Below are positions 10,802 to 52,739 of a stretch of DNA of 52,739 nucleotides, in pieces (position 1 is the stretch's first letter; each line of letters starts with the position of its first letter). The stretch is from Bacteroidaceae bacterium (GTDB taxonomy: Bacteria; Bacteroidota; Bacteroidia; Bacteroidales; Bacteroidaceae). The stretch is from assembly GCA_017451645.1 (NCBI GenBank), contig JAFTNZ010000038.1, forward strand, positions 1 through 52,739. Direction: 5' to 3'. Both the position numbers and the translations under genes were made by a program. Under the pieces are notes generated by a model. It was not told the origin of the DNA and did no database searches. It was given only the letters and a program-made list of their open reading frames with translations.

Positions 10802-10812
10802 AACTTATAGTT

Positions 10813-19725: not shown

Positions 19726-19777
19726 TTTATACCTACATTTATTATTTAGGTGACCACAAGAGAAACCTACAATTCTT

Positions 19778-37314: not shown

Positions 37315-37322
37315 CATCGTTA

Positions 37323-37386: not shown

Positions 37387-37401
37387 CATCAGACTATACA
37401 C

Positions 37402-38010
37402 ATGTTTATAGAACAACCTCCAAATATTGTCAGATGGATATATCCCAAGGCCATTTGGCGGATGAATCCCAATGAAAGAAAGGTTTACCTTACTTTCGAT
37501 GATGGCCCTATACCAGGCATTACACCTTGGGTACTCGACCTTCTTGACAAATACAAAATAAAGGCAACTTTCTTTCTTGTGGGAGACAATGTGAGGAAAC
37601 ACAAGGAAGAATTCGACATGATTGTCAGACGTGGACACCGGGTAGGCAACCATACATATAACCATGTAAGAGGATTCAGTGACAAAGCACCACAGTATAT
37701 TGAAAATGTGAAAAAAGCCGATGAACTCATACATTCCGACCTTTTCCGTCCACCACACGGATATATGGGATGGAGACAGTATCATACCCTATGCAAGCAG
37801 TACCGCATCATCATGTGGGATCTTGTCACACGCGACTATAGTCGGCGGCTGAATGGCAAACAGGTCTTCGAAAAACTCAAGAAATATGTACGCAATGGTT
37901 CCATCATCACTTTCCACGATTCACTGAAATCCGAAAAAAATCTCAAATATGCCTTGCCACGTTCCATTGAGTGGATGATAGAACAAGGATACAGTTTCGG
38001 CACACTATAA
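37402..38010 (+). CDS. Polysaccharide deacetylase family protein (NodB fold)
   Basis: The product has 202 residues. Motif 1 YLTFDDGPIPG, motif 2 HRVGNHTYNH (metal ligands) and motif 3 FRPPHGY of carbohydrate esterase family 4 are visible, as is the late SIITFHDS motif. Such enzymes remove N-acetyl groups from amino sugars in peptidoglycan or other glycans. There is no signal peptide, so the protein may act in the cytoplasm on lipid-linked or nucleotide-linked sugars. The start at 37402 is chosen because the upstream in-frame Met lies in the terminator. queG follows after 1 bp. Confidence 0.85.
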   Translation: MFIEQPPNIVRWIYPKAIWRMNPNERKVYLTFDDGPIPGITPWVLDLLDKYKIKATFFLVGDNVRKHKEEFDMIVRRGHRVGNHTYNHVRGFSDKAPQYIENVKKADELIHSDLFRPPHGYMGWRQYHTLCKQYRIIMWDLVTRDYSRRLNGKQVFEKLKKYVRNGSIITFHDSLKSEKNLKYALPRSIEWMIEQGYSFGTL

Positions 38011-38011
38011 G

Positions 38012-38956: not shown

Positions 38957-38967
38957 CAAGGCTTACA

Positions 38968-38999
38968 TTTCGTATATCCGATAAAAAAGCCTACCTTTG
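38968..38999 (+). promoter_or_regulatory. Promoter of tRNA-Arg
   Basis: TTTCG (38968-38972) is followed after 19 bp by TACCTTTG (38992-38999), 20 bp before the tRNA 5' end. Confidence 0.7.
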
Positions 39000-39019
39000 C
39001 AGCCTGAAAGTATTGAGTT

Positions 39020-39091
39020 GCCTCTGTAGTTCAACGGATAGAATAGAAGTTTCCTAAACTTTAGATAGGGGTTCGATTCCCCTCGGAGGTA
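39020..39091 (+). tRNA. tRNA-Arg (anticodon CCT)
   Basis: The 72-nt cloverleaf folds well. Acceptor GCCTCTG pairs with CGGAGGT (one G-T at the first pair), then discriminator A. The anticodon stem GAAGT/ACTTT encloses loop TTCCTAA, giving CCT, which reads AGG. The T arm is GGGG-TTCGATT-CCCC. The 3' CCA is not encoded. It stands between queG and the DUF4294 gene. Confidence 0.93.
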
Positions 39092-39151
39092 CACTTTTAA
39101 TACAACTTTACATAAAAGTTATCCTGACTGACTAAAAGATAGTTAAGATAC

Positions 39152-39183
39152 TTGGTAACCAACAGATTTTATTTTTACTTTTG
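39152..39183 (+). promoter_or_regulatory. Promoter of the DUF4294 gene, close to the start codon
   Basis: TTG (39152-39154) and TACTTTTG (39176-39183), 21 bp apart. The ATG follows the -7 box by only 4 bp, so transcription would begin at or next to the start codon. Confidence 0.55.
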
Positions 39184-39187
39184 CTGC

Positions 39188-39793
39188 ATGTTAAGATATC
39201 TCCATACAGCTATATTTGCCGGATTTCTTGCAATCAGCATAAATGCTTATGCACAGACACAGAGCACAACTGAAAACAGACGGGTAATGCTCAGGTTATG
39301 TGTATATGAAGGAGACACCATACCATGGATACAGCTCCGCACGGTATATATATATAAGCCACTCAAACTGAAAAACAAAAAACAAAGAAAGGCCTACGAC
39401 AAATTGGTGCGCAACGTGAAAAAGACATTGCCCATAGCCAAAGAAATCAATCACATCATCATAGAGACCTATGAATATATGGAGACATTGCCTGATGAGA
39501 AGGCCAGAAAAAAACACATCAAAGCTGTAGAAGAATCGCTGAAAGAGCAATATACACCACGGATGAAAAAACTCACCTTCTCACAAGGAAAACTGTTGAT
39601 AAAGTTGGTGGACAGGGAGTGCAACCAGTCGTCATACGAATTGGTAAAAGCTTTTATGGGACCTTTCAAAGCAAGTTTCTATCAGACCTTCGCTTCGCTC
39701 TTTGGAGCAAGCCTCAAGAAGGAATACGACCCTGAAAACGACGATGCTATGGTCGAACGCGTGGTGGTATTGGTTGAAAACGGACAATTATAA
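39188..39793 (+). CDS. DUF4294 family secreted protein
   Basis: The product has 201 residues. A signal peptide (LRYLHTAIFAGFLAISINAYAQ) is followed by the DUF4294 region, which opens with YEGDTIPWIQLRTVYIY. It has many Lys and Glu residues (KLKNKKQRKAYDKLVRNVKK) and a later LTFSQGKLLIKLVDRE motif. The family is common in Bacteroidetes and of unknown function; the protein is probably periplasmic. The stop codon overlaps that of the convergent methyltransferase by 6 bp. Confidence 0.82.
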   Translation: MLRYLHTAIFAGFLAISINAYAQTQSTTENRRVMLRLCVYEGDTIPWIQLRTVYIYKPLKLKNKKQRKAYDKLVRNVKKTLPIAKEINHIIIETYEYMETLPDEKARKKHIKAVEESLKEQYTPRMKKLTFSQGKLLIKLVDRECNQSSYELVKAFMGPFKASFYQTFASLFGASLKKEYDPENDDAMVERVVVLVENGQL

Positions 39794-40321
39794 TTTCATT
39801 ATCCGGCGGGCAAATTCCCAAATGATGATACCGGCAGTAACGGAAACATTCAACGAATGTTTCGTACCAAACTGAGGAATCTCTATACATCCGTCGCAAG
39901 CATTCACCACCTCCTGCTTCACTCCCTTCACTTCATTTCCCAATACAACAGCATATTTTCCTTCAGACGACAGCGCTATATCCTGAAGCATCGTGCTTCC
40001 TTCACACTGTTCGATAGCAAACACAGTGTAACCTGCTGCATGAAGTTGGCCGATGACATCCGATGTATCGGTGTGATATGTCCATGCTACAGTGTCTTCA
40101 GCACCAAGTGCAGTCTTGTGCATCTCGGGATGTGGTGGAGTAGCTGTAATACCACACAAGCAGATGCGCTCCACTTTGAAGGCATCCGACGTACGGAAAA
40201 CTGACCCTACATTATGCAAACTACGCACTTCATCAAGCACCACTACCAAAGGTATTTTTTCCGATAGACGAAACTCCTCGGCACTGATACGTTTCATTTC
40301 TGTTATACTGAGTTTTCTCAT
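39788..40321 (-). CDS. SpoU/TrmH-type RNA 2'-O-methyltransferase
   Basis: The product has 177 residues. The SPOUT knot motifs are clear: LDEVRSLHNVGSVFRTSDAF, VVLGNEVKGV and IPQFGTKHSLNVSVTAGI. These enzymes methylate ribose 2'-OH in tRNA or rRNA; the exact target cannot be read. The start at 40321 is chosen by homology; the ATG at 40393 would add a 24-residue unrelated tail. Confidence 0.88.
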   Translation of the reverse strand: MRKLSITEMKRISAEEFRLSEKIPLVVVLDEVRSLHNVGSVFRTSDAFKVERICLCGITATPPHPEMHKTALGAEDTVAWTYHTDTSDVIGQLHAAGYTVFAIEQCEGSTMLQDIALSSEGKYAVVLGNEVKGVKQEVVNACDGCIEIPQFGTKHSLNVSVTAGIIIWEFARRIMKL

Positions 40322-40865
40322 TATTCTTTCCCCTAATCCTATAAATATTTTGCAAAGAAATGGATTTTCTTTCACAACAGCAAAGGTTTTCAAGGGAATT
40401 TCGATAAAAGGAGGAACACAGCTGACAAATCTACTTGCTTCAGAATGTCAACAACCCTTGCTTATTTGTTAACAACCGGTGAAAAACCGGTGAATTAAAA
40501 TCTGAAAGAAAATAGGAAAAACTTTTGGTCATTCAAAAAAAACGCATATCCAAACGCAAAATTGAACTGCCCAAAAAAAGAAGCAGAAAGTTAATTCTAT
40601 AATATAAACTCACTTTTCAATAATAAATGGCATGGTTTTTCAAATTTACTTTTTAACTTTGCACTTATAAACAGAAAGTTGAAAACTATGCAATTCCTTT
40701 TATAATCAAAGAACTATCCTGTGGACAGATAGAGGAAGACAGTTAATAATACCTTAATAACTTAATGAACAAAAAAACGGAAGTTTCATTATCCACACAG
40801 TTAACAGGCTATTATCATCAGCATAGATTTTTCTTCTATAGAAATAAAAAAATATATATTAATTT
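40322..40865. other. Intergenic region upstream of nadA: palindromes, DnaA-box-like sites, promoter
   Basis: The palindrome ACCGGT occurs twice (40475-40480 and 40486-40491), separated by GAAAA, forming a 6-bp hairpin. TTATCCACA (40789-40797) is a perfect DnaA-box consensus. TTATAAACA (40665-40673) and TGTGGACAG (40720-40728, inside a CTATC...GATAG dyad) are near matches. The rest is very AT-rich. No gene is seen. Confidence 0.5.
40654..40661 (+). promoter_or_regulatory. -7 box upstream of nadA
   Basis: TAACTTTG matches the -7 consensus. The leader to nadA would be about 200 bp and contains the dyads and the TTATCCACA site. A clear -33 box is not seen. Confidence 0.5.
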
Positions 40866-41858
40866 ATGGTTAAGCAGAATTGGTTGAAAAAAGGATTTGT
40901 AGATGAACCTATCGATGAATCCGTAGATTTGAAAAAAGAGATTGACAGGTTGCGCAAAGAAAAGAATGCAGTCATCTTGGCGCACTATTATCAGTCTGGT
41001 GAAATACAGGATATAGCCGATTATGTGGGCGATAGTCTGGCATTGGCACAATGGGCGGCAAAGACCGATGCTGACATCATAGTACTTTGTGGAGTGCATT
41101 TTATGGGAGAGACAGCAAAAGTCATCTGTCCTGAAAAAAAAGTGCTTGTGCCCGATATGAATGCCGGATGTTCATTGGCTGACAGTTGCGATGCCAAGGA
41201 GTTTGAAGCTTTTGTAAAGCAGCATCCCGGACACACTGTCATTTCTTATGTGAATACTACAGCTGCTGTAAAGGCGGTAACGGATGTGGTAGTTACCTCT
41301 ACCAATGCCCGACAGATAGTAGAGAGTTTTCCTGAGGATACACCCATTATTTTTGGACCCGATCGCAATTTGGGCAATTACATCAATTCCATTACTGGGC
41401 GTGAAATGCTCTTGTGGAATGGTGCCTGCCATGTGCATGAACAATTTTCTGTACAGAAGATTCTCGAACTCAAGCGCCAGTATCCCGATGCACTCATCCT
41501 TGCCCATCCGGAGTGTAAGGGCGCAGTGGTGAAGTTGGCTGATGTGGTAGGTTCTACAGCTGCTTTGTTGAAGCATGCTGTAAATAGTAATTGTAAGGAC
41601 TTCATTGTAGCTACCGAAAGCGGTATTTTGCATGAGATGCAAAAACAGTGTCCTGAGAAAAATTTCATTCCTGCTCCGCCTGAGGATAGCACGTGTGCTT
41701 GTAACGAATGCAATTTCATGCGTTTGGGTACATTGGAGAAATTATATAACACCCTGAAATATGAGTGGCCGTCCATTGAAGTGGATGCAGAAGTAGCTGA
41801 AAAAGCTGTGCGTCCTATCCGGCGGATGTTAGAAATTTCAGCCAAGCTTGGGTTATGA
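40866..41858 (+). CDS. nadA: Quinolinate synthase NadA
   Basis: The product has 330 residues. It condenses iminoaspartate with dihydroxyacetone phosphate to quinolinate in de novo NAD synthesis, using one [4Fe-4S] cluster. Motifs: ILAHYYQSGEIQDIADYVGDS, CGVHFMGETAKVICP, MNAGCSLADSC, WNGACHVHEQF and CACNECNFMRLGTLEKLY. nadB and nadC are not in the window. The stop overlaps the next start (ATGA). Confidence 0.97.
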   Translation: MVKQNWLKKGFVDEPIDESVDLKKEIDRLRKEKNAVILAHYYQSGEIQDIADYVGDSLALAQWAAKTDADIIVLCGVHFMGETAKVICPEKKVLVPDMNAGCSLADSCDAKEFEAFVKQHPGHTVISYVNTTAAVKAVTDVVVTSTNARQIVESFPEDTPIIFGPDRNLGNYINSITGREMLLWNGACHVHEQFSVQKILELKRQYPDALILAHPECKGAVVKLADVVGSTAALLKHAVNSNCKDFIVATESGILHEMQKQCPEKNFIPAPPEDSTCACNECNFMRLGTLEKLYNTLKYEWPSIEVDAEVAEKAVRPIRRMLEISAKLGL

Positions 41859-43036
41859 TGACAGTGCGGTTTGGTTTGGTTTGGTTGCTGTTCACATTGG
41901 TGACTGCTCCTCTGCACGCCCAAAAGAAGAAAGGTGAGGAGGCAAGGGTGAGCGGCCGGTATGAATTGAGGAAAGATATGCCCGTGTTTCTTGATGCATT
42001 GAAGTCGGAGCTGACCTATCCCTTAGCTTGGGGAAACAGTCCTATAAAGAAATTTTCAAAATGGAAGCGTGAAGCGCGCAGAAAAGTGTTCGAATCCATG
42101 ATGGCACCTCCTCTTGAAAGCAGTTCGTACGACATGGAGGTCAGCGCTGTGGAGAAACGTCCGGGATACGAGGTAAGGAAAATAGATTTCAATCTTACGC
42201 AATATTCCCGTGTGCCTGCCTACTTGTTGGTACCTGAAGGTGAAGGCCCTTTTCCTGCCGTTGTGCTGATGCATGACCATGGTGCACACTTCTCGATTGG
42301 CAAAGAGAAAATGGTGCGTCCTTTTGGAGTGGATTCATTGGTGTTGGCTGATGCAGACACTTGGGCACATGGGTGTTACGACGACCAGTATGTGGGCGAC
42401 TATCTGGCTTCACGCGGTTATGTTGTGCTCACTTTCGATGCACTCTTTTGGGGAGAGCGTGGACGCAAAGAGGGAGTAAAATACGATAGTCAGCAGGCTG
42501 TAGCTTGTGTATTTGAGATGTTGGGTCGTAGTTGGAGCGGATTCACCACTTATGAAGATTGTTATGCAGTAGATTTTCTGACAACTTTGCCGGAAGTGGA
42601 TAAAGAGCGGATAGGAGCAATGGGATTTTCCATGGGGGCTTATCGCACCTGGATGCTTTCTGCTTTGAGCGATAAGGTGAAGGCAGGTGCTGCCATTTGT
42701 TGGATGGTGACTACCGACTATCAGCTTCATTGGGATTATCGTGGAGGAAAAGGAGGTTCTGACTTTGCCAATACATTGCCTGGTATCCGTCAGTATATGG
42801 ATTATCCTCACATTGCCTCTTTGGCATGTCCGAAGCCCATGCTTTTCTTCAATGGAAGAAAAGATAAACTTTTCCCCGTGCCTTCTGTCGAAAAGGCTTA
42901 TGCAGAAATGCGTCGTGTGTGGGAAAGTCAAGATGCTTCAGATAAGCTTGTCACCGAATTTTGGGATCTTCCTCATTTTTGCAGTAAGGAGATTCAAAAA
43001 AAAGTAGCCGATTGGTTTGACGAAGTCCTGAAATGA
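41855..43036 (+). CDS. Secreted alpha/beta hydrolase (dienelactone hydrolase-like)
   Basis: The product has 393 residues. The signal peptide ends near APLHAQ (about residue 23). The catalytic fold is visible: HDHGAHFSIGKEK, nucleophile elbow GFSMGAYRTW (Ser), acid loop FFNGRKDKLFPV (Asp) and DLPHFCSKE (His). Related proteins act on esters of plant or microbial glycans; the substrate cannot be inferred. It is translationally coupled to nadA, an unexpected pairing of a cytosolic biosynthesis gene with a secreted hydrolase. A strong terminator follows. Confidence 0.85.
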   Translation: MMTVRFGLVWLLFTLVTAPLHAQKKKGEEARVSGRYELRKDMPVFLDALKSELTYPLAWGNSPIKKFSKWKREARRKVFESMMAPPLESSSYDMEVSAVEKRPGYEVRKIDFNLTQYSRVPAYLLVPEGEGPFPAVVLMHDHGAHFSIGKEKMVRPFGVDSLVLADADTWAHGCYDDQYVGDYLASRGYVVLTFDALFWGERGRKEGVKYDSQQAVACVFEMLGRSWSGFTTYEDCYAVDFLTTLPEVDKERIGAMGFSMGAYRTWMLSALSDKVKAGAAICWMVTTDYQLHWDYRGGKGGSDFANTLPGIRQYMDYPHIASLACPKPMLFFNGRKDKLFPVPSVEKAYAEMRRVWESQDASDKLVTEFWDLPHFCSKEIQKKVADWFDEVLK

Positions 43037-43040
43037 AATA

Positions 43041-43094
43041 TTCCGGACATGAATGACGATGTGACTGATTTTTCAACATCATTCATGTCCGGAA
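43041..43094. terminator. Bidirectional terminator
   Basis: TTCCGGACATGAATGA (43041-43056) and its perfect complement TCATTCATGTCCGGAA (43079-43094) form a 16-bp stem that extends by GATG/CATC across one bulge. T-rich sequence follows on the plus strand. It lies between the convergent hydrolase and yjbQ-like genes. Confidence 0.8.
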
Positions 43095-43097
43095 ATT

Positions 43098-43508
43098 TTA
43101 TTCATAAATGGTTGCCACTATTTTTCGTTCTCCGCCATAGTTGCGGAATTCACAGAGGTAGATACCTTGCCAAGTGCCAAGGTTCAGACGTCCTTCTGTG
43201 ATTGGAATAGTCAGACTTACACCAAAGAGTGAGCATTTTGCATGTGCCGGCATGTCATCTTCCCCTTCCATTGTATGGTTGTAATATGGTTCATTCTCTT
43301 TTACAAGCCGGTTCATTATCTGGTTCAAGTCGCTCCGTACGTCCGGATCAGCATTTTCATTGATGGAGAGTGCGCATGAAGTATGTTGTACAAACAGGTT
43401 AAGCAATCCTGTTTTCGGCAGAGGAGTTATGTTTTTCAATATTTCGTTGGTTATCAGATGACATCCTCTGCGTTTTGATGAAATTTTGAACGTAAATTGT
43501 TTTATCAT
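43098..43508 (-). CDS. YjbQ family protein (UPF0047)
   Basis: The product has 136 residues. Family motifs are HTSCALSINENADPDVRSDL and HAKCSLFGVSLTIPITEGRL, with the late GTWQGIYLCEFR. YjbQ proteins have weak thiamine-phosphate synthase activity in vitro; the true role is not settled. It lies 21 bp after the yjbR-like gene and is probably co-transcribed with it. Confidence 0.9.
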   Translation of the reverse strand: MIKQFTFKISSKRRGCHLITNEILKNITPLPKTGLLNLFVQHTSCALSINENADPDVRSDLNQIMNRLVKENEPYYNHTMEGEDDMPAHAKCSLFGVSLTIPITEGRLNLGTWQGIYLCEFRNYGGERKIVATIYE

Positions 43509-43529
43509 AGTTGTGGATTATTTATAGAA

Positions 43530-43910
43530 TCACCTTAAATTTATTTCATCATTCAATAAATTTATTCCTGCCTCTTTTTTTATTTTTTTTGATATCTTCT
43601 TCACCACCTCATTGTAGCTGTGTCGGATGAGTGAACATATCAGGTTGTCGGGTAACTGGCCGAAAAGATTCAATTGGTTCCAGTATTTCTTGTTCATGTG
43701 CCAGGCAGGAGCTATCTCCGGATAATGCTCGCGTAACTCAATGGCATATTCAGGTTCACACTTCAGTACAAACCATTCTGTATTTTCCAAATCCATCATG
43801 GCAAATATTTTTCCACCTATACGAAATACCAATGTTGTTTCGTCAAATGGGAAATCTTCTGTTACCTGAGGCAGTGAGAGGCAATAATCTCTTGCTATTT
43901 CTATATCCAT
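43530..43910 (-). CDS. MmcQ/YjbR family protein
   Basis: The product has 126 residues. Recognisable features of the YjbR fold are EIARDYCLSLPQVTEDFPF, VFRIGGKIFAMMDLE and HMNKKYWNQL. The family has a DNA-binding-like double-wing fold; function is unknown. The start at 43910 fits the -7 box TACTTTTG at 43935-43928; the longer in-frame start at 43940 would lie upstream of transcription. Confidence 0.88.
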   Translation of the reverse strand: MDIEIARDYCLSLPQVTEDFPFDETTLVFRIGGKIFAMMDLENTEWFVLKCEPEYAIELREHYPEIAPAWHMNKKYWNQLNLFGQLPDNLICSLIRHSYNEVVKKISKKIKKEAGINLLNDEINLR

Positions 43911-44476
43911 CTTCTGTATTTTTGGAGCAAAAGTAATCAATCTTTTCTGAATACATAGTATTTTTTACAGATTAATGATTTGATTGATGTGTTTCCAAAA
44001 TAATTGCAATTACTTTGCCAACGAATATATACTGCGTTGGCACTTGGAGTATATATTACTTTACCGATGGAGTCCATTAAGGATAAGCAATAGCCAAAGA
44101 CATTCGGGCCTGACAGTTGATATTCGGGTATCAAAAATCTGATTGCCTATGCAAACTTTTTATTTTGCGGATGTGAAAAGTTTAATTTAAACTTTTGCGT
44201 GCTGCATGACAATAAAAGTAAATTGATTTTACTTTATTTCTCGTATATATGAGTAAAATTGTTTTTTTTGAAATCAATCGAATAATGATAAGAATTAGCG
44301 TAAAACCACTTTTTTCGAATGAAATATGTGTTTGATTGAAAGTAAATCAGTAGATTTGCATTATAAATATCAATAGTTACATCTAATCAGGTTTATGCAG
44401 TTATCTGTCGCTTTCCCGATCTGTTTGTGAAATCCGAAGGGCGGATAATGTTGATGATATAAAAGAATAAGACTTT
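43911..44476. other. Intergenic region with nested palindromes
   Basis: It contains the yjbR promoter box (CAAAAGTA at 43928-43935, minus strand). Two interleaved inverted repeats are present: CCAACG/CGTTGG (44018-44023, 44035-44040) and AATATATACT/AGTATATATT (44024-44033, 44048-44057). The SDR/ADH promoter lies at 44331-44358. A 65-codon open frame at 43937-44134 has no family features and is not called. Confidence 0.55.
44331..44358 (+). promoter_or_regulatory. Promoter of the SDR-remnant/ADH operon
   Basis: TTTG (44331-44334) and TAGATTTG (44351-44358) are 16 bp apart, slightly short of the usual 19. The leader to the SDR ATG at 44477 is about 115 bp. Confidence 0.5.
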
Positions 44477-44664
44477 ATGATAGCAAATACATTCAAAGAT
44501 AAAGTAGTTATTGTAACCGGTGGTGCCAACGGTATTGGCCGGTGTATTGCCGATGAGTTCCGTTCAAAGGGAGCCATTGTCTGTGTGATTGACAAGCAAG
44601 AAGGTGAGCATTTACCAAGCAGATGATTTATCACGGAGACTGTGGGTGGAAGTTGGAGGAATAA
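44477..44664 (+). pseudogene. Short-chain dehydrogenase with large internal deletion
   Basis: The first 45 codons encode a normal SDR N-terminus: the NAD(P) loop VTGGANGIGRCIADEF and the strand IVCVIDKQEGEH. The frame then ends at 44626. In another frame, 44611-44664 reads KQMIYHGDCGWKLEE and stop, which resembles the usual SDR C-terminus (...GGMTRxMIYH...). The middle of the gene, including the catalytic Ser-Tyr-Lys, is missing and the junction is out of frame. Roughly 500-600 bp is inferred to be lost from normal family size. It lies 14 bp before the ADH gene. Confidence 0.75.
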
Positions 44665-44678
44665 ATATTCAGACAATT

Positions 44679-45710
44679 ATGTTAGCATACACATACATCG
44701 AAAAAGGAAAGTTCGCTTTGGTGGAAAAGCCGAAGCCTGCACTCATTGAACCTACCGATGCCATTGTTCGAGTGACGATGAGTAGTATCTGCACCAGTGA
44801 CCTACATATTAAGCATGGAAGCGTGCCTCGTGCAGTGCCTGGTATTACTGTCGGTCACGAAATGGTAGGTGTTGTTGAAGAGGTTGGATCAGAAGTCACC
44901 AATGTAAAGCCAGGGGATAGAGTAACTGTAAACGTAGAGACCTTCTGCGGAGAGTGTTTCTTCTGCAAGAATGGCTACGTGAACAATTGTACCGACCCGA
45001 ATGGCGGTTGGGCATTGGGATGCCGTATCGATGGCGGACAGACGGAATACGTGCGTGTACCGCTTGCCAATCAAGGATTGAACCACATCCCTGATAGCGT
45101 TTCCGATGAACAAGCCTTACTAGTAGGCGATGTCTTGGCCACAGGCTTTTGGGCGGCCCGTATTTCTAAGATTACTGAAGACGATACCGTACTAATCATA
45201 GGAGCGGGACCTACAGGTATCTGCACGCTCCTTTGCGTGATGTTGAAACACCCCAAACGCATCATTGTCTGTGAAAAATCTGAAGAAAGATGTCGCTTCA
45301 TCCAAGAACATTACCCCGATGTGTTGCTCACTACTCCCGAAGAATGCAAGGAGTTTGTCTTGAAGCATAGCAATCATGGTGGAGCCGACCGTGTGCTTGA
45401 AGTGGCCGGAGCCGATGATACTTTCCGCCTCGCGTGGGAATGTGCCCGCCCGAATGCCATCGTAACGGTGGTTGCCCTCTACGACCAGCCTCAGGTTCTT
45501 CCTTTACCCGACATGTATGGCAAGAACCTTACCTTCAAGACCGGTGGTGTGGATGGATGTGATTGCGAAGAAGTCCTTCATCTTATTGAACAGGAAAAGA
45601 TTGACACCACTCCGCTCATCACGCATCGTTTCACATTGAGTGAAATTGAAGAAGCCTACCACATCTTCGAGAACAAGTTGGATGGGGTGATTAAAGTGGC
45701 GATAGTTTGA
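44679..45710 (+). CDS. Zinc-dependent alcohol dehydrogenase
   Basis: The product has 343 residues. Medium-chain fold: catalytic zinc ligands in SSICTSDLH and VGHEMVGVVEEVG, the structural-zinc lobe CGECFFCKNGYVNNC (four Cys), and the cofactor loop GAGPTGICTLL. E244-like acidic residues after the second strand (IVCEKSEER) suggest NAD over NADP. Substrate is unknown. The start at 44679 is family-typical; an in-frame ATG at 44589 would run through the SDR remnant. It was probably the second gene of an SDR-ADH operon. Confidence 0.92.
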   Translation: MLAYTYIEKGKFALVEKPKPALIEPTDAIVRVTMSSICTSDLHIKHGSVPRAVPGITVGHEMVGVVEEVGSEVTNVKPGDRVTVNVETFCGECFFCKNGYVNNCTDPNGGWALGCRIDGGQTEYVRVPLANQGLNHIPDSVSDEQALLVGDVLATGFWAARISKITEDDTVLIIGAGPTGICTLLCVMLKHPKRIIVCEKSEERCRFIQEHYPDVLLTTPEECKEFVLKHSNHGGADRVLEVAGADDTFRLAWECARPNAIVTVVALYDQPQVLPLPDMYGKNLTFKTGGVDGCDCEEVLHLIEQEKIDTTPLITHRFTLSEIEEAYHIFENKLDGVIKVAIV

Positions 45711-45723
45711 TTGCTAACCACCA

Positions 45724-46356
45724 TTACCCAAGCATCTGCTTGCCTGCATCGTATGCCTTTTGCAAGTCTTCCTCCCAATGGGCATCACGCCAAGCATATT
45801 TGGCTTCTTCGGAAAAACCGCCCAATTCGTAATTGCCATATTTCGCCACCTGACAAGTGTTGTAGGCTACTATACGTTGTGGCTCGCCAAGGGCTGTAGT
45901 GATGCACCATTCCATCGAGCCAAAGCCGTTGCTATTATTGCGTTCAGGCGTACCATTCATGGTTTCAACAAGTAGCACTGGCATACGCTTGGGGGCGGTC
46001 AGGCTGTAATCGTTATACGATAGCCACGGGAATGCCAAACGCTCCAGAAAAGCACGCATCTGTCCCGTTACTTCACCAAAATAGATTGGTGAGCCAAGCA
46101 CAAGACCATCAGCCTGCGCAATCTCCTCCAAGAGGGGAGTCAGCGTATCCTTAAAACGGCAGATATTCGATGCTTTACCTTTGAGTTTGCAAGCCATGCA
46201 CGACATGCAACCCTTATAATCGAGGTCATAGAGCCGTACAGTCTTAACTTCAATATCACTACCCACAGATTTGGCTCCTTCGGCAGATCTCTGCAACAAC
46301 TTTGCAGTATTCATATTCTTTCGTGGACCGCCATCGATAATTATAATCTTTTTCAT
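45724..46356 (-). CDS. Flavodoxin-fold NAD(P)H-dependent FMN reductase, iron-sulfur flavoprotein type
   Basis: The product has 210 residues. It begins with the flavodoxin strand IIIIDGGPRKNMNTAKLL (FMN phosphate loop). It continues with a cysteine cluster GCMSCMACKLKGKASNIC, which matches the compact Cx2Cx2C...C arrangement of iron-sulfur flavoproteins, and with the FMN-ring loop LGSPIYFGEVTGQMRAFLERL. It may reduce quinones, metals or electrophiles. It converges on ADH with 13 bp between stops. The position of the cysteines suggests, but does not prove, a 4Fe-4S cluster. Confidence 0.87.
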   Translation of the reverse strand: MKKIIIIDGGPRKNMNTAKLLQRSAEGAKSVGSDIEVKTVRLYDLDYKGCMSCMACKLKGKASNICRFKDTLTPLLEEIAQADGLVLGSPIYFGEVTGQMRAFLERLAFPWLSYNDYSLTAPKRMPVLLVETMNGTPERNNSNGFGSMEWCITTALGEPQRIVAYNTCQVAKYGNYELGGFSEEAKYAWRDAHWEEDLQKAYDAGKQMLG

Positions 46357-46980
46357 TGACTCTATTGTTTATTCTTATACAACTTCAATAAATGAGATTT
46401 TGTTCACTTCCCGATGCAGCAAAGTAACCCTTCTGATAGTCAATAACTTACATGAAATTGGGCAAAAATTTGGGCCACGCTTGTAACTATCAAGCTTTCA
46501 ATGACTTACAAAGATAATATTTGAAATTCAAAAAGGAAAAAGAAATTTCCCTGAAAAAGTCAAGATTTAACATATTTAACTTTTATTAAGTGCTATATCT
46601 CAGTGATTTACCTGATTTCATGCTGTTTTACTCTATTTAGATTAACAGTTGCCATATGGGTTTAAATGGCCTGAATAAATTTGGGCCAAAAACTGTCCAA
46701 ATTTGGTTGAAAAATCATTTGTGAGCATTCTGGAACATTTAAAAGATATTGTACAGAATCTCATCGGTGGCTACTTTGTATTCCATTGATAGCTAGTAGA
46801 TAAACGCTATTTTCGTATTGTCTTTGAGTTTAAGTTTAGGTTTAAATAGGCATATACATATATATGATATTACTTAAACTCATTTGCTTTTCACGGAAGT
46901 AGATTTGAGTTTAATTTTCGGGTTTAGATTACATGTATATATACATGATTTTAACATAAACTTTGATGATACTTTTCTCT
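46357..46980. other. AT-rich intergenic region at the edge of the accessory island
   Basis: No gene is seen. The word AAATTTGGGCC occurs at about 46468 and 46678. From about 46822 a degenerate relative of the long direct repeat (GTTTAAGTTTAGG... with an AT-rich dyad) precedes the exact copy at 46911. A minus-strand TATCTTTG at 46516-46509 could serve the flavodoxin gene. Confidence 0.5.
46911..46963 (+). repeat. Long direct repeat, copy 1 (53 bp identical)
   Basis: It is identical over 53 bp to 49111-49163, with weaker similarity continuing to about 47010. It contains the perfect 16-bp palindrome CATGTATATATACATG. The two copies start exactly 2,200 bp apart and bracket the AbiEi remnant, fic1 and its promoter. 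Confidence 0.9.
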
Positions 46981-47181
46981 TTACTGAAATAACAGGTTTG
47001 TGATGAGTTCGTTGATTTCTTGATTAATGCTTCTGCGTTTTGCATAGCGCAACAGCTTTTGGGTATTTATAGAATATTGGTCGAATGCAAGCCAGTACAT
47101 GTTAAGGGATTCAACTCCACGCAAATAGTCAAAGTCTGCATCTTTTTGAGTATCGACCAACAATTTTTCCAAAGTTGGCAC
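46981..47181 (-). pseudogene. C-terminal remnant of an AbiEi/DUF6577-like protein
   Basis: A 66-codon frame reads PTLEKLLVDTQKDADF... LLRYAKRRSINQEINELI. The PxLEKLLVD and LxRYAxRR patterns are typical of the C-terminal part of AbiEi-type or DUF6577 proteins. Upstream in the same frame is KKATEAALL, an in-frame TAG, then KEVPTLEK, so the gene is broken. A short GGKPIIN stretch further upstream may be another piece. Family assignment is from memory of motifs. Its 3' end overlaps the degenerate tail of the direct repeat. Confidence 0.5.
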
Positions 47182-47369
47182 TTCCTTCTACAAAAGGGCG
47201 GCTTCGGTCGCTTTTTTCTTTACTGAAAAGATTTCTTATTAGACTAATTGATAATAGGTTTACCGCCGACAATGACATACATAAGTTCACCTCTCTCATT
47301 ATGACTCAAGTTATATCATTTGAAGAGAGAGGCGAATTTCGTTATCCACAAATTCGATGGCTACTTAGA

Positions 47370-48881
47370 TCAAAGAAGGATAATCTTTGCAAAATCAGTA
47401 ATATCTCCATTGATACTTGCCTTTTCAAGTGCAGCCATATATGTGGAACGTTCTTCAACAGTAATGATTTTCCAAGGGTAACCGGCCGTAACCAGCATTA
47501 CATTCATCAGGAATCGCGCTGTTCTTCCGTTTCCGTCCATGTAAGGATGGATATAGACAAAGAAAAAGTGCCCTAAAATGGCTCTTACCATGGCATTCTC
47601 CTCTTCCTTCATCAGATCAATGAATACGGGCATAGCGTCTCTGACCGCATCGGGAGAAAGGGGTGTATGCTTAGAACCACGAATGTAAACTTGTCCAGTT
47701 CTATATCCAATCAGGTCTGAAGGCTTGATGATACCGGCTACGATACAGGGTTGAAACATCTCAAAGTGCCAATTCTCAAAATTACGCCCGGCGATTTCTC
47801 CTGCATTGCCGTTCTGAATAATCTCCCTTACACTTTCCTTAACTTGCAGGAATGCCTGATAATACCCTCTTGCCGCTAATGCGTTCTTGCGTTCTGCATC
47901 TGTCTTATCATCTTTAGGATTCCATTCACCAGAACGCACTCGTTCTATAAGTCCTTCTGTAACTCTGTAACCCTCGATTGACAGGGAGTGATAGGAGTCT
48001 CTAACATAGTTCTCGTCCATGTTACCAAGAACCTCCTCCAAGGATAATGTTGAATTAGCTGCCTTTGGATTCAATGCAAGAATCTGTTCTTTCATCTTCT
48101 TCCACATCAGGCGTAAGCGTATTGTATAGGGAGAAATGATACGACCACTTGCAAACGTGCTTTCCATTTTATCCTCAAAAGGGTCCTCGGGACGCAGATT
48201 GTGACCTATTCTTACCATATAGTCAAGGATTCTCTGAGCCATTTCCTCGCGCCCGACATTGCGAAGAGCACCAACCAATCTTGATGCTCTGGATGAATTT
48301 CCTTCATCTGCAACTTCCCTTAGTATTTCATCCGCACTACCAACCATCAAAAGACATGTACGTGCATTTACAGCACTCTTCTTGAAGTACGTGGGAGTAC
48401 AAAATGCCAAAGCTTCGGGCAGAGTGTACAATCTTAAACCATATCTTGGTTCGATGTACACCTGTCTGGGCATCGAGGCAGTGATGTCCAATAATGAGTC
48501 GCCATGTTTCAGCTGGATGATGTTATTACTGGCTTTTGTGGAACGCAGAATCAACTGATGCGGAGCAACAGTCTCTCCTGCATAAAAATCTAATGATTCT
48601 TCAGGGGTAAGACACCAGCCCTCTCCGAATCTATTGTTTGCATAGGCTACGACGAAATGCCAATAAGAAGCGTACCAAACTGTGGTATCTCCTTCCATGC
48701 CAGGCATGGTGGGCATATACCATCCTTTGATGATCTGTTCAAGGTAGCCATTTTGAATAAGGCGTTTTGAATGAACACCCCCCAAGGTTTCAAGACCTTT
48801 AATGATGCAGTTTTGGTGAGTGTCTTGATATTGTTTCAAAACACCCAATGAATCTGCCAGTTTCTCTTGTATGCTTGCCAT
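47370..48881 (-). CDS. Fic family protein with N-terminal AbiEi-like region (fic1)
   Basis: The product has 503 residues. The Fic motif HPYMDGNGRTAR (445-456) is complete: catalytic His, acidic residue, anion-binding loop and Arg. Fic proteins transfer AMP or a similar group from a nucleotide to Ser, Thr or Tyr. An inhibitory-helix motif S-x-x-x-E-G is present as SLSIEG (299-304), upstream of the Fic core (class II type), so activity is probably restrained in cis. Residues about 10-200 resemble the winged-helix part of AbiEi antitoxins (IIKGLETLGGVHSKRLIQNGYL, IIKGWY). The promoter carries five repeats. No partner gene is adjacent. Confidence 0.9.
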   Translation of the reverse strand: MASIQEKLADSLGVLKQYQDTHQNCIIKGLETLGGVHSKRLIQNGYLEQIIKGWYMPTMPGMEGDTTVWYASYWHFVVAYANNRFGEGWCLTPEESLDFYAGETVAPHQLILRSTKASNNIIQLKHGDSLLDITASMPRQVYIEPRYGLRLYTLPEALAFCTPTYFKKSAVNARTCLLMVGSADEILREVADEGNSSRASRLVGALRNVGREEMAQRILDYMVRIGHNLRPEDPFEDKMESTFASGRIISPYTIRLRLMWKKMKEQILALNPKAANSTLSLEEVLGNMDENYVRDSYHSLSIEGYRVTEGLIERVRSGEWNPKDDKTDAERKNALAARGYYQAFLQVKESVREIIQNGNAGEIAGRNFENWHFEMFQPCIVAGIIKPSDLIGYRTGQVYIRGSKHTPLSPDAVRDAMPVFIDLMKEEENAMVRAILGHFFFVYIHPYMDGNGRTARFLMNVMLVTAGYPWKIITVEERSTYMAALEKASINGDITDFAKIILL

Positions 48882-48990
48882 TAGTATTTATACTATATGA
48901 TGCTGTTAGTTTTTATATAGAGCGATGATATTAGTTTATATCAATGCATCGATGTTAGTATTTACGCCTGCAAAGGTATTAGTTTTTACC
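48881..48990. repeat. Five-copy operator-like array over the fic1 promoter
   Basis: TTAGTATTTATA (48881), TTAGTTTTTATA (48906), TTAGTTTATATC (48931), TTAGTATTTACG (48955) and TTAGTTTTTACC (48979) lie 25, 25, 24 and 24 bp apart. On the coding strand each reads about TAAAAACTAA. The array spans from the -33/-7 spacer to the ATG. Spacing near 2.3-2.4 helical turns is regular enough for a repeated protein site. Confidence 0.8.
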
Positions 48991-49002
48991 GTAACACACA
49001 AG
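48971..49002 (-). promoter_or_regulatory. fic1 promoter
   Basis: On the minus strand, CTTG (49002-48999) is followed after 20 bp by TACCTTTG (48978-48971). Repeat 5 abuts the -7 box on its upstream side and repeat 4 covers the expected start of transcription. The leader is about 85 bp. Confidence 0.65.
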
Positions 49003-49110
49003 CTTTACGACAATTATTTCAAATTCTGACTACCTGATTTTTGCATGTTTTCTGCAAGAATCGAGGATTAAATGTGATTTTTATGTATTTAAGCCATTCG
49101 GGGATGAACC

Positions 49111-49163
49111 TTAATTTTCGGGTTTAGATTACATGTATATATACATGATTTTAACATAAACTT
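49111..49163 (+). repeat. Long direct repeat, copy 2
   Basis: It is identical to 46911-46963 over 53 bp, including the palindrome CATGTATATATACATG. Similarity continues with gaps to about 49217, covering sequence that in copy 1 is the 3' end of the AbiEi-like remnant. Confidence 0.9.
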
Positions 49164-49218
49164 GGTGCTTGATAATGCTTTTCTCCTTATTGAAAGACAG
49201 GCTTGTGATAAGTTTTGA

Positions 49219-49261
49219 ATATAAATTCGGCAATAACTCTATATTATTGCCGAATTTATAT
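49219..49261. terminator. Hairpin, possible terminator
   Basis: ATAAATTCGGCAATA (49221-49235) and TATTGCCGAATTTAT (49245-49259) are perfectly complementary, extending by two pairs outward, with a 9-nt loop. It follows copy 2 of the direct repeat. It has few T's after the stem, so its role is uncertain. Confidence 0.5.
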
Positions 49262-49525
49262 AACCGCTTTAAATGTGATTAACCGAGTAACTAGTTCTAT
49301 TTAGCCTGAAGAAGTAAATTTTGGAGATTGACTTTTCAGCTCTCGTTTCCATAGTTCTGAATAAAATCCCCTCAACCCATCATATAATTAATGAAACATA
49401 CCCATATAATGTACTATAATAAATGTTGAGCCATCTGTATTCTACTTTCCTTTCTGAGCAGAATGCGTTCAATGTGAGATTTAATCTTACTAACCAATAA
49501 ATATAATTTTGCCTTATTTGAATCC

Positions 49526-49730
49526 TTAATCGACAAAATTACCCTAAAATACGCCTCTTAATCGACAAAATTACCGTTTCTTGTAGCAATTGATGTCGCT
49601 TAATGGAAAAATTTGCTTTTAATCATAAGATAAATATCAAAATCTGGCTTTTTAATCAGAAAAATCATCTTTTTAACCCCTTAATCGACAAAATTACCCT
49701 AAAACACACCCCTTAATCGACAAAATTGCC
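49526..49730 (+). repeat. Four iteron-like copies in two pairs upstream of fic2
   Basis: TTAATCGACAAAATTACC occurs at 49526, 49558 and 49681, and as TTAATCGACAAAATTGCC at 49713. Copies within a pair are exactly 32 bp apart, and the sequence between them (CCTAAAAYACRCC) is also conserved. Degenerate relatives lie between the pairs (TTAATGGAAAAATT near 49600; TTAATCAGAAAAAT near 49652). Copy 4 ends at 49730, directly against the -7 box. Confidence 0.85.
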
Positions 49731-49738
49731 TAATTTTG
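49731..49738 (+). promoter_or_regulatory. -7 box of fic2
   Basis: TAATTTTG fits TAnnTTTG, 29 bp before the ATG. The same octamer also occurs at 49504-49511, before copy 1 of the repeat. No -33 box is clear because repeat 4 occupies the spacer. Confidence 0.65.
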
Positions 49739-49767
49739 CATTAGAATTGAATTATTAATAGAAAAAA

Positions 49768-51243
49768 ATGGCAAAAAACAGTTCAATGCAGAATGTCTTG
49801 GAAGTGATAATGGCTACTTCCGAAAAGAATGATTCAAGCCGAAAGGCAGAAATGATAAAACAGGGTACAATAAGGAAAATTGCTCCAAAGGTATATACTA
49901 CCAATATGGAAGATACACCGGAGGTAATTATCCGTAGGAATTTGTTCTACATATTAGGACAACTATACCCTCGTGCCGTCATAAGCCACAGGTCTGCTTA
50001 TGAACTGAAACCTACAGCAGAAGGTGATATATTTCTGACCTACTCATATACCAAGAACATTTCTTTGCCAGGAATTAAAGTACACCTGTTGCAAGGACCA
50101 CAAGGAACGGAGCATGATATGCCTTTCATCGAAAACCTCTATATCTCCAGTGCGGAACGCAGGACTTTGGAAAATCTTCAGAAAGGCAGAGCGCGTTCAG
50201 GTGTATCCAAATGTATGCCCCGTACATTCATTGAAGAGAATTTGGAACGGATGCTTCAGATAAACGGCGAGGCTTACATCAATATGTTCCGTGATAAAGC
50301 TAGGACTATTGCTGCAGAACTTGATATGGTAGAAGAGTTTGAGACTTTAAACTCCATTATCGGTGCACTGTTGTCAACTCGCCCGACTGAAATACTCACA
50401 TCCGAAAGTGCAGCAGCAAGAGCTAAAGGAGAACCATTTGATTCAGAAAGAGTGCATCTATTTGGAACTTTGTTTCAGGCACTTCACAATGAACAGTTCC
50501 CTTATATAGACGAACCCAATGTGGAAAATTCGGCTTTCAGAAATTTTGCATTTTTTGAAAGCTATTTCTCCAACTATATTGAAGGAACTGAATTTGAAAT
50601 CGAAGATGCTTGGCAAATAATTGAGACTGGCCAGCCAATGCCAGCACGTAATGCTGATTCACATGACGTTTTGGGTACATTCCAAATTGTTGCAAGCCGA
50701 AGAGAAATGCGGCGAACCCCCACATCATCAGATGATTTGATTGAGCTGCTTCAAGACAGGCATCGAATAATGATGGCTGCTCGTCCGGACCGAAATCCTG
50801 GTATGTTCAAGATGCAAAACAATCATGCAGGAGACAGCCATTTTGTGGATTGTATGCTTGTTAGAGGCACACTTCGTAAAGGGTATGAATTTTATCAGGC
50901 TCTCGAACATCCTTTCGCCAAGGCTTTGTTCATGCTGTTTATGGTAAGTGAGGTTCATCCGTTCAATGATGGTAACGGACGTATTTCAAGAATAATGATG
51001 AATGCAGAACTTGTAGCGGCAGACCAATCAAAGATTATCATTCCTACAGTCTTTCGAGAAGACTATCTGAATGCACTCCGTAGATTGACAAGAAAAGGAG
51101 ATCCATGTGTCATCATAAGAGCTATGTCCAGAGTCCGTCAGTTCAGTGCAAAACTGACTGGTGACGATTTTGAGACTACCCGAAAATATCTGGAAGAATG
51201 TTATGCATTCAAGGATGGTGATGGGTATATACTCCGTTTCTAA
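49768..51243 (+). CDS. Fic family protein with N-terminal AbiEi-like region (fic2)
   Basis: The product has 491 residues. The Fic motif HPFNDGNGRISR (397-408) is complete. The inhibitory motif S-x-x-x-E-G appears as SNYIEG (268-273), again N-terminal to the catalytic core. Residues about 30-130 (IRKIAPKVYTTN, NLFYILGQLYPRAVISHRSAYEL) look like an AbiEi-type winged-helix region, which would bind DNA. The sequence is quite unlike fic1 outside the motifs, so this is not a recent duplicate. It is transcribed away from fic1 and has its own repeat array. Targets are unknown. Confidence 0.9.
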   Translation: MAKNSSMQNVLEVIMATSEKNDSSRKAEMIKQGTIRKIAPKVYTTNMEDTPEVIIRRNLFYILGQLYPRAVISHRSAYELKPTAEGDIFLTYSYTKNISLPGIKVHLLQGPQGTEHDMPFIENLYISSAERRTLENLQKGRARSGVSKCMPRTFIEENLERMLQINGEAYINMFRDKARTIAAELDMVEEFETLNSIIGALLSTRPTEILTSESAAARAKGEPFDSERVHLFGTLFQALHNEQFPYIDEPNVENSAFRNFAFFESYFSNYIEGTEFEIEDAWQIIETGQPMPARNADSHDVLGTFQIVASRREMRRTPTSSDDLIELLQDRHRIMMAARPDRNPGMFKMQNNHAGDSHFVDCMLVRGTLRKGYEFYQALEHPFAKALFMLFMVSEVHPFNDGNGRISRIMMNAELVAADQSKIIIPTVFREDYLNALRRLTRKGDPCVIIRAMSRVRQFSAKLTGDDFETTRKYLEECYAFKDGDGYILRF

Positions 51244-51296
51244 TGTTTGATATGTATTCAACAAGAAATATCCAAATAATATTGTCTGGACACATA

Positions 51297-51327
51297 TTCG
51301 AGATATGTATAAAAAGCAGTACCTTTG
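51297..51327 (+). promoter_or_regulatory. Promoter of the accessory HU gene
   Basis: TTCG (51297-51300) is followed after 19 bp by TACCTTTG (51320-51327). It is the same arrangement as the tRNA-Arg promoter. It makes the HU gene independent of fic2. Confidence 0.65.
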
Positions 51328-51367
51328 TACCCCCAATTCAGAAATATAATAAATTAAGAAGATAATT

Positions 51368-51640
51368 ATGACAAAAGCAGAGATTGTAAGCGAAATAGCT
51401 TCTAAAACAGGAATTGACAAACGTGAAGTTTTGATGGTTGTTGAGAGCTTGATGGACACAATCAAGACTACAATGACCAATGGTGAAGAAGTATTTCTTC
51501 GTGGATTTGGCAGCTTTATCATTAAGCGCAGAGTGGAAAAGACTGCAAGAAATATATCAAAGAATACCACAATGATTGTACCTGCTCATAACATTCCGGC
51601 ATTCAAACCTGCAAAAGAATTTCTGGAGAAAGTAAAATAA
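51368..51640 (+). CDS. HU family DNA-binding protein
   Basis: The product has 90 residues, the standard HU/IHF size. It starts MTKAEIVSEIASKTGI, carries the turn FLRGFGSF and the DNA-gripping arm region with NIPAFKPAKEFLEKVK at the end. It binds and bends DNA as a dimer. Gene position in the island, between fic2 and ssb, suggests service to a mobile or defence region, though it could be a plain nucleoid protein. A terminator follows. Confidence 0.93.
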   Translation: MTKAEIVSEIASKTGIDKREVLMVVESLMDTIKTTMTNGEEVFLRGFGSFIIKRRVEKTARNISKNTTMIVPAHNIPAFKPAKEFLEKVK

Positions 51641-51692
51641 TCACTATAAAGCAATATAAGACCGTAAAAGTCTGACTGTGGCATAAGCTTTC

Positions 51693-51733
51693 AAGAGTTG
51701 AATCGTTTTAAATGGTTCAGCTCTTTTTTCTTT
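51693..51733 (+). terminator. Rho-independent terminator of the HU gene
   Basis: AAGAGTTGAATC (51693-51704) pairs with GGTTCAGCTCTT (51714-51725), including two G-T pairs, followed by a run of T. Confidence 0.75.
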
Positions 51734-52461
51734 ATTGATACGGTATTTCACCTGGGGAAACCTGCTTTTATGAAGAATTTTAGCCTATTTTTTATGTTTT
51801 TCCAAAAATAATTTTCGTTACGCAAAAACAAAAATCATATTTTATTTATGTGATTTATTGGATTCCCGTAATTTCGGACCGAAACCGCTCTTGGCATGTG
51901 AAAAGCTTTTTCTTCTTCTTGGTCTTCCTTTGAGTCGTTCCTTATCATTCAATATTGCTCACTTGGTTGCTGCATATCCGTAAACTTGCCTGCATTTTCA
52001 TTAGTTCTTCCTCTGTTCGTGTCTTTCTGTCAGATTCCTATTTCTAAGACAATGAAGAGTCGTATCTGTTCTGGCCACTTTGCTGTTTAGCAGATATGCT
52101 AGTATATCTTTTCTTCTTACTGAATACTGATGTGAATGAAGCGGCAACATGTAGCAAACTCTTAGGGCAGCTTACCTTATGAACCTGTGCGAGTGTTCTT
52201 GGTCATCCTCTTCATATCAGTTTTTTCGAGCGAAGTATCACACTTACTTTTTCCGCTGCAAAGTTAGTGCAAGCCGTATTCCTACAAGTACCAGTTCCTT
52301 ATTTCCTGAATTTTTTCAAAAACTTTTCCGCATGCTGCTCATACATAAAACTTTTCCAGGCAGAGTGAAATAATTCGTTAATTCCTTGCTTTGCATCCTT
52401 TCCTTGCCAACTCTGAGAGCACCGTAAAAAATAAATGTATAACTTCTAAAAAACAAAGATT
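51734..52461. other. Long non-coding stretch before ssb with an orphan leftward promoter
   Basis: No protein family is recognised on either strand. On the minus strand CTTG (52288-52285) and TAACTTTG (52266-52259), 18 bp apart, form a good promoter pointing left, with no gene downstream. A short minus-strand frame near 51850-51960 reads KGRPRRRKSF...KSGFGPKLRES; it is basic but too short to name. Confidence 0.5.
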
Positions 52462-52739
52462 ATGAAAAAGATTGAAAACACTTTCGCAGTTACAGGTTTC
52501 GTTGGTAAGGACGCTTCTATCCATGAGTTCACAACATCTAGCGTTGCTCGTTTCTCACTTGCAATCAGCCGTACAGAGAAGAATGGCGATGAAACCAGCC
52601 GTACATCAGCCTTCATCAACATCGAGGCTTGGCGCAAGAACGAAAACACCTCTTCATTCGAACGTCTCACAAAAGGAACCATGTTGACAGTAGAAGGCTA
52701 CTTCAAGCCAGAGGAATGGAACTCTGAAGATGGTGTCAA
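52462..52739 (+). CDS. ssb: Single-stranded DNA-binding protein, cut by the window end
   Basis: The first 92 residues are present. The OB-fold pattern is clear: VTGFVGKDASIHEF, VARFSLAISRTEK, TSAFINIEAWRK and RLTKGTMLTVEGYFKPEEW. It binds single-stranded DNA during replication or transfer. The short N-terminus and divergent sequence are like the accessory SSBs of Bacteroidales mobile elements rather than the main chromosomal SSB, but this is inference. The C-terminus lies beyond the window. Confidence 0.88.
   Translation, partial: MKKIENTFAVTGFVGKDASIHEFTTSSVARFSLAISRTEKNGDETSRTSAFINIEAWRKNENTSSFERLTKGTMLTVEGYFKPEEWNSEDGV

What the first reader, a model, noticed from the sequence alone, without database searches (positions are those of the whole stretch)
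47370..51243. Two divergent, apparently self-contained AbiEi-like/Fic modules
Both proteins combine an N-terminal region resembling AbiEi antitoxin winged helices, an S-x-x-x-E-G inhibitory motif and a complete Fic motif in one chain, and neither has an adjacent partner gene. Each has its own distinct repeat array at its promoter. This suggests a single-protein switch: DNA binding for autoregulation, cis inhibition, and a modifying toxin-like activity. Fic proteins and AbiEi are known; the fused, paired arrangement with private operators may be undescribed.
Basis: partly seen in the sequence, partly recalled or inferred. Interest (0 to 1): 0.75.

Follow-up and report, generated by a model that had tools for sequence, protein, structure and literature searches.

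The report
Fic proteins with promoter repeat arrays
Two neighbouring bacterial genes each make one protein that appears to read its own promoter through evenly spaced DNA repeats at one end and to carry a self-inhibited protein-modifying (Fic) enzyme at the other; each belongs to its own widespread family with a typical repeat spacing.

Summary
P0001 (47370-48881, -) and P0002 (49768-51243, +) are single-chain proteins: an N-terminal DNA-binding-like module, an S-x-x-x-E-G motif and an intact Fic motif. Each promoter carries a direct-repeat array seen nowhere else in the genome, bar one two-mismatch site for P0002. Relatives turn this into a rule: P0001 relatives have arrays of period exactly 24 nt (61 of 71 homologues; 8 of 398 control upstream regions), P0002 relatives 31 nt (24 of 36; controls 5 of 151), with steps of 41 or 52, i.e. 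extra DNA turns. In both families array similarity follows the N-terminal module, not the Fic domain. AlphaFold gives P0001 a confident winged helix. AbiEi kinship is supported for P0002 and weak for P0001. The pairing is local. A one-chain Fic autorepressor is known (CccR), but with a C-terminal HTH and palindromic operator; this module order with fixed-pitch direct-repeat arrays I did not find in the papers searched. Most likely: autorepressing, self-inhibited Fic toxins or defence proteins, often on mobile elements. Binding, repression and AMPylation are untested.

The parts
47370..48881 (-). P0001, 503 aa: wHTH (about 4-57), alpha/beta module (about 61-165), helical linker (166-285), class II Fic domain (286-503; SLSIEG at 299, HPYMDGNGRTAR at 445)
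   Evidence: AlphaFold model mean pLDDT 89.9, pTM 0.88
48882..48993 (-). P0001 operator-like array: five units of about 24 nt with TAAAwACTAAyA-type cores; first bases of the cores near 48988, 48964, 48940, 48915, 48890; the last unit abuts the ATG
   Evidence: 0 of 500 shuffles; 24-nt period in 61 of 71 homologues
48971..48978 (-). Bacteroidota -7-like box TACCTTTG inside the first unit of the P0001 array
   Evidence: consensus match only; the box consensus is recalled
49525..49730 (+). P0002 operator-like array: units CTTAATCGACAAAATT(A/G)CC at 49525, 49557, 49599 (diverged), 49651 (weak), 49680, 49712; spacings 32, 42, 52, 29, 32
   Evidence: 31-nt period in 24 of 36 homologues
49731..49738 (+). 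-7-like box TAATTTTG directly after the last P0002 unit
   Evidence: consensus match only; the box consensus is recalled
49768..51243 (+). P0002, 491 aa: AbiEi-like N-terminal module (about 8-160), helical linker, class II Fic domain (SNYIEG at 268, HPFNDGNGRISR at 397)
   Evidence: AlphaFold model mean pLDDT 83.1, pTM 0.78
46904..47009 (.). left copy of a roughly 105-nt direct repeat that brackets the P0001 gene and its array (partial third copy at 46823-46880)
   Evidence: only these places, and the duplicate contig, in the own genome
49111..49214 (.). right copy of the same direct repeat, 87% identical

Best explanation
Each gene encodes a one-chain, self-contained switch. The N-terminal winged-helix (AbiEi-like) module recognises the units of the gene's own promoter array, probably one protomer per unit, lined up head to tail with a fixed pitch (24 bp for the P0001 family; 31 bp, or 31 plus whole turns, for the P0002 family). 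Filling the array over the -7 box, start site and leader (P0001) or just upstream of the -7 box (P0002) represses the gene. The class II inhibitory motif keeps the Fic domain idle in the same chain. Some trigger, perhaps phage infection or loss of the element, removes repression and/or inhibition, and the Fic domain AMPylates a target and halts growth. Shown here: gene anatomy, arrays, pitch, their conservation, covariation with the N-terminal module, intact motifs, predicted winged helix in P0001. Inferred: binding, repression, AMPylation, trigger and the defence or maintenance role.
For: 24 nt is the single best lag in 61 of 71 P0001 homologues against 8 of 398 control upstream regions (ties that include 24: 1 and 39); 31 nt in 24 of 36 P0002 homologues against 5 of 151, with further steps at 41 and 52, as expected of one DNA face. 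Partial correlation of array similarity with the N-terminal module given Fic: 0.371 (P0001, 64 arrays, 0 of 300 permutations) and 0.323 (P0002, 31 arrays, 0 of 300); with Fic given the N-terminus: -0.236 and -0.086. Confident winged helix in P0001 (H4-21, H29-33, H35-43, E47-51, E54-57); the elements of P0001 67-160 and P0002 51-135 follow a similar order, P0001 having one strand more. AbiEi profiles hit P0002. Fic motif intact in 70 of 71 and 36 of 36, inhibitory motif in 65 of 71 and 36 of 36. Arrays private to the locus. On plasmids: 78 and 19 of 72,556 records, 41 of the 78 conjugative. Precedents: CccR represses its own promoter and AMPylates FtsZ (PMC9755527); AbiEi monomers bind 23-bp repeats (PMC7319586).
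Against: No binding or activity data. N-terminal profiles find no solved structure by sequence, and the fold search returned only Fic proteins in the 50 rows shown of 276, so AbiEi fold identity was not shown; the N-terminus was not searched alone. Mutual information did not single out the HTH residues 25-56 (1 of top 10, 2 of top 40, permuted mean 2.55). Permutations ignore phylogeny. In one genus seven P0002 relatives of the 36 have no clear array. Six of 71 P0001 relatives fail the strict inhibitory or Fic pattern. In the P0002 model the first 30 residues have low confidence and no wing strands. A small partner cannot be excluded: a same-strand ORF of at least 45 aa follows within 120 nt in 12 of 33 P0002 loci, though none recurs, three of five annotated plasmid relatives are followed closely by a small hypothetical gene (69 of 67-71), and EcSofic has a small downstream antitoxin (PMC12249575 abstract).
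Confidence: 0.67

Rival explanations
1. The P0001 array acts as RNA: the transcribed leader consists of repeats that the protein, or a type III-like mechanism, binds to control translation or toxicity.
For: In 32 of 45 P0001 relatives with a -7-like box no unit lies upstream of it, so the array runs through the leader, often up to the ATG; repeats just before a toxin-like gene recall type III toxin-antitoxin loci (recalled).
Against: In 13 of 45, the window included, at least one unit reaches upstream of the -7-like box (loose unit calls); in L129, L138 and L143 two or three do. P0002 arrays step by helical turns (31, 41, 52) and all called units start upstream of the -7-like box in the four homologues where a box was found. 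No Rfam match, no terminator between array and gene, a winged helix is predicted. The -7 boxes are consensus matches, not mapped promoters.
Confidence: 0.1
2. The arrays are operators of another regulator, host or element encoded, not of the Fic protein.
For: No binding test. The two Bacteroidales plasmid relatives looked at have a recombinase gene directly before and a RhuM gene near the Fic gene.
Against: No recurrent neighbour in 71 P0001 and 36 P0002 loci; array similarity follows the N-terminus of the Fic protein itself in two families; the units occur only at these genes in the own genome.
Confidence: 0.08
3. The repeats are replication iterons, recombination sites or slippage products without regulatory role.
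For: Mobile-element context and the 105-nt repeats around P0001.
Against: Family-specific pitch across phyla and place before the start codon; upstream regions of other ORFs in the same loci lack it.
Confidence: 0.03

Closest known systems
CccR of Yersinia pseudotuberculosis (PMC9755527; section 9 and passages seen, abstract in part)
   Same: One chain with class II Fic and a DNA-binding domain; represses its own promoter; AMPylates a target.
   Different: HTH is C-terminal; operator is one pair of 10-bp inverted repeats 26 bp apart; secreted by a type VI system; dimer. Here the module is N-terminal and the operators are direct-repeat arrays of fixed pitch.
AbiEi antitoxin / Rv2827c of type IV AbiE systems (PMC7319586; passages seen)
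   Same: N-terminal winged helix, second domain, one monomer per 23-bp repeat, negative autoregulation of the own promoter.
   Different: Partner toxin AbiEii in an operon; inverted repeats; no Fic domain.
SoFic and PDC-S04 defence proteins (PADLOC models; PMC12249575 abstract read)
   Same: Fic domain matched in 67 of 67 and 10 of 10 family members; Sofic AMPylates targets in phage defence.
   Different: Match covers only the Fic half; other flanking domains; EcSofic has a small downstream antitoxin; no phage test here.
CbFic2 (PMC10628234; passages seen)
   Same: Class II Fic with a winged helix whose DNA binding changes (de)AMPylation activity.
   Different: C-terminal wHTH, random DNA was used, no promoter array.

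Membership tests
[quoted passage not shown]
   P0001 model matches FICD and other Fic chains, (P0002 model not searched)
Class II Fic proteins | inhibitory (S/T)xxxE(G/N) N-terminal to the Fic motif in the same chain | tested here: met
   both window proteins; 65 of 71 and 36 of 36 relatives
Class II Fic proteins | AMP transfer held back by the motif | not testable with these tools
   no assay
AbiEi (type IV toxin-antitoxin) | sequence kinship of the N-terminal module | tested here: inconclusive
   P0002: PADLOC AbiEi E 3.3e-4, family best 3.1e-6; P0001 itself none, family best 4.5e-4, at most 10 of 67 members for one model; Pfam none on either; hhalign to four AbiEi groups that I picked from PF13338 hits: E 1e-4 to 2e-3, probability up to 57% (P0002) and 1e-3 to 0.08, up to 21% (P0001), against 0.06 and 0.26 for an unrelated set
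AbiEi (type IV toxin-antitoxin) | operon with an AbiEii nucleotidyltransferase toxin | tested here: not met
   no neighbour recurs
AbiEi (type IV toxin-antitoxin) | paired inverted repeats of 23 bp as operator | tested here: not met
   direct repeats of 24 or 31 nt pitch
CccR-like Fic regulators | C-terminal HTH and palindromic operator | tested here: not met
   module is N-terminal, operator is a direct-repeat array
SoFic / PDC-S04 defence systems | full-length match to the defence protein | tested here: not met
   only the Fic half of P0001 and P0002 is matched; relatives matched, ranges not listed
SoFic / PDC-S04 defence systems | protection against phage | not testable with these tools
   no assay
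Type III toxin-antitoxin | RNA repeats, terminator, ToxN-like endoribonuclease (recalled) | tested here: not met
   Fic domain instead, no terminator found, units upstream of the -7-like box in some relatives

The most novel reading that the evidence does not exclude
The array is the antitoxin. With no protein partner, binding of several protomers in register on the promoter array holds the Fic domain inactive or in a deAMPylating state, so loss or destruction of that DNA (plasmid loss, phage attack on host DNA) frees the enzyme. Two distinct Fic families would then have evolved the same DNA-as-antidote design with different pitch and changing private codes.
Probability: 0.1. Interest if true: 0.88.

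Novelty: new variant of a known kind. Interest (0 to 1): 0.62.

Why it matters
A single gene that carries sensor, brake and effector, with an operator of fixed geometry but private code, is a compact regulatory design. It is found on many plasmids, where the listed matches are mostly annotated only as 'Fic family protein'. The pitch makes it testable at once: a 24-bp and a 31-bp head-to-tail array predict defined protein-DNA assemblies, and the covariation of array and N-terminus offers a natural set of protein-DNA specificity pairs. It may also show how class II Fic enzymes, whose release from inhibition is poorly understood (PMC9755527 and PMC10628234, passages), are switched.

Tried and rejected
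Viral-contig search with single sequences gave nothing for P0001 and no true relative for P0002; alignment queries found 20 for P0002 and 2 for P0001. Isolated phage records at E 1e-50: no match. Pfam and PDB sequence searches of the N-termini: no AbiEi hit on the queries; one P0001 relative of 67 has AbiEi_3_N at E 0.13. hhalign of P0001 and P0002 N-termini with each other: no signal. Mutual information with the HTH alone: not enriched. The first array test (10 of 12 matches) was too strict for the window copy. The duplicate pair on C30 is rejected as a second locus. RNA model: rejected as main reading. Fold search of P0001: only Fic matches in the 50 rows shown; none was run for P0002. I saw no description of N-terminal AbiEi-like plus Fic proteins with such arrays in the listings, an open-access library only.
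Full report
What is there. The two ORFs are as described. Pfam sees only Fic in each. The Fic motif and, 146 (P0001) and 129 (P0002) residues before it, a class II inhibitory motif are intact. The best solved relatives are FICD chains or their homologues by sequence (profile of P0001) and, for P0001, by fold.

N-terminal modules. AlphaFold gives P0001 a confident winged helix (helices 4-21, 29-33, 35-43, strands 47-51 and 54-57), followed by an alpha/beta piece (67-160). P0002 shows a similar order of elements at 51-135, with one strand fewer, but its first 30 residues have low confidence and its first 50 show helices without wing strands. PADLOC AbiEi profiles match P0002 (best E 3.3e-4, residues 8-89), and its family with up to 7 of 10 members for one model (best E 3.1e-6). 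In the P0001 family one model reaches 10 of 67 members (best E 4.5e-4), the window protein none. So P0002 is probably, P0001 possibly, AbiEi-derived. N-terminal profiles find no PDB chain.

Relatives. In a sample of 395 genomes of the phylum, own included, P0001 is matched in 15 and P0002 in 37 at E 1e-60. They lie on plasmids (78 and 19 of 72,556 records), including p5482 of B. thetaiotaomicron, and in viral contigs (2 and 20 loci), but were not found in isolated phage records.

Arrays, P0001 family. The single best repeat lag before the ATG is exactly 24 nt in 61 of 71 dereplicated homologues, against 8 of 398 upstream regions of other ORFs in the same loci; ties that include 24 number 1 and 39. 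The shared unit is nnCAnAATAAACTAATAATAGTAC (89 of 96 upstream regions gave a chain, some out of phase). The core differs between lineages (CTAAT, CGAAT, CGAGT, CTTGT, CGTGT, CTAAA, CTGGA and others, read), and units are more alike within an array (0.74 at the core) than between arrays (0.58-0.59). Of 45 upstream regions with a -7-like box, the box lies 11-14 nt before a unit in 35, and 13 have at least one unit upstream of it, two or three in L129, L138 and L143.

Arrays, P0002 family. The best lag is exactly 31 nt in 24 of 36, against 5 of 151 controls; spacings between copies are 31 (30 times), 41 (9), 32 (4), 34 (2), 42 and 52 (1 each), with nine other values once each. On a count of repeats, 18 of 36 pass p<=0.05 against 40 shuffles, and 11 of 36 against 2 of 151 controls score 4 or more. 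Steps of a helical turn point to DNA read from one face. The last unit starts 37-60 nt before the ATG in 22 of 27. In the window the units are spaced 32, 42, 52, 29 and 32.

Who reads the arrays. Array similarity was compared with similarity of protein parts. P0001 (64 arrays): partial correlation with residues 1-165 given Fic 0.371 (0 of 300 label permutations reach it), with Fic given 1-165 -0.236. The left part of the unit follows residues 24-58 (0.281) and also 166-285 (0.274), the core follows 111-150 (0.408) (windows). P0002 (31 arrays): 0.323 for the N-terminus given Fic (0 of 300), -0.086 for Fic given the N-terminus. Two families give the same answer. Limits: permutations do not respect the tree, and mutual information by residue did not favour the HTH, although none of its top 10 pairs lay in the Fic domain.

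Partners and context. Within 2 kb no neighbour recurs in more than 4 of 71 P0001 loci or 3 of 36 P0002 loci, so 'self-contained' holds as far as tested; small lineage-specific partners are not excluded (12 of 33 P0002 loci have a same-strand ORF within 120 nt downstream). The pair is not conserved: window and G014 have it; among the 71 loci only the window has a P0002 relative within 2 kb, while L107 and L149 have other Fic ORFs at 23-26% identity and L090 a P0002 piece about 4.5 kb away. G045 carries relatives of both about 157 kb apart, the P0001 one broken; G115 carries both on separate short contigs, so their distance is unknown. The duplicate contig C30 shows ssb, a ParA-like and a HipA-like ORF beyond the window's end (the names are my reading of the translations), consistent with a mobile element.

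Mechanism and comparison. CccR shows that a one-chain Fic protein can repress its own promoter and AMPylate a target (PMC9755527). AbiEi monomers bind 23-bp repeats and repress their promoter (PMC7319586), which fits a 24-bp unit per protomer. CbFic2 suggests that DNA binding can change Fic activity (PMC10628234). I therefore read the window pair as two autorepressing class II Fic switches of different families, with direct-repeat operators of fixed pitch. That is a new variant of a known kind. Everything beyond anatomy, conservation and covariation is inference.

Noticed in passing
window 46823-46880, 46904-47009, 49111-49214: A roughly 105-nt direct repeat with a palindromic centre (ACATGTATATATACATG) brackets the P0001 gene and is found nowhere else in the own genome but the duplicate contig; possible trace of insertion.
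   Followed up: partly
window 37045-52739 and G000:C30 (L068) 4306-20000: The end of the window's contig is repeated, inverted, on C30 with 19 mismatches in 15,695 nt: redundant or two-strain assembly.
   Followed up: partly
L068 97-4583: Beyond the window end: HipA-like ORF, ParA-like ORF with a small partner, ssb, names by my reading: plasmid or integrative-element genes; HU-like ORF at window 51368-51640.
   Followed up: partly
L267 and L268: On two Bacteroidales plasmids a recombinase gene stands directly before the P0001 or P0002 relative, and a RhuM gene lies nearby.
   Followed up: no
L132 and L121: Longer arrays of 8 and 6 called units in single P0001 relatives, suggesting unit gain and loss.
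   Followed up: no
L216, L217, L218, L220, L222, L226, L227: P0002 relatives from one genus without a clear array.
   Followed up: no
G045:C2 462691-463835: A P0001 relative in two overlapping open stretches of different frame with a stop, while its P0002 relative elsewhere on the contig is open throughout.
   Followed up: no
L107 and L149: Other Fic ORFs (23-26% identical to P0002) within 1 kb of a P0001 relative: Fic genes may cluster.
   Followed up: no
window 2-73: Tandem array of a 21-nt unit overlapping the start of an HU-like ORF (name by my reading) at 67-783.
   Followed up: no
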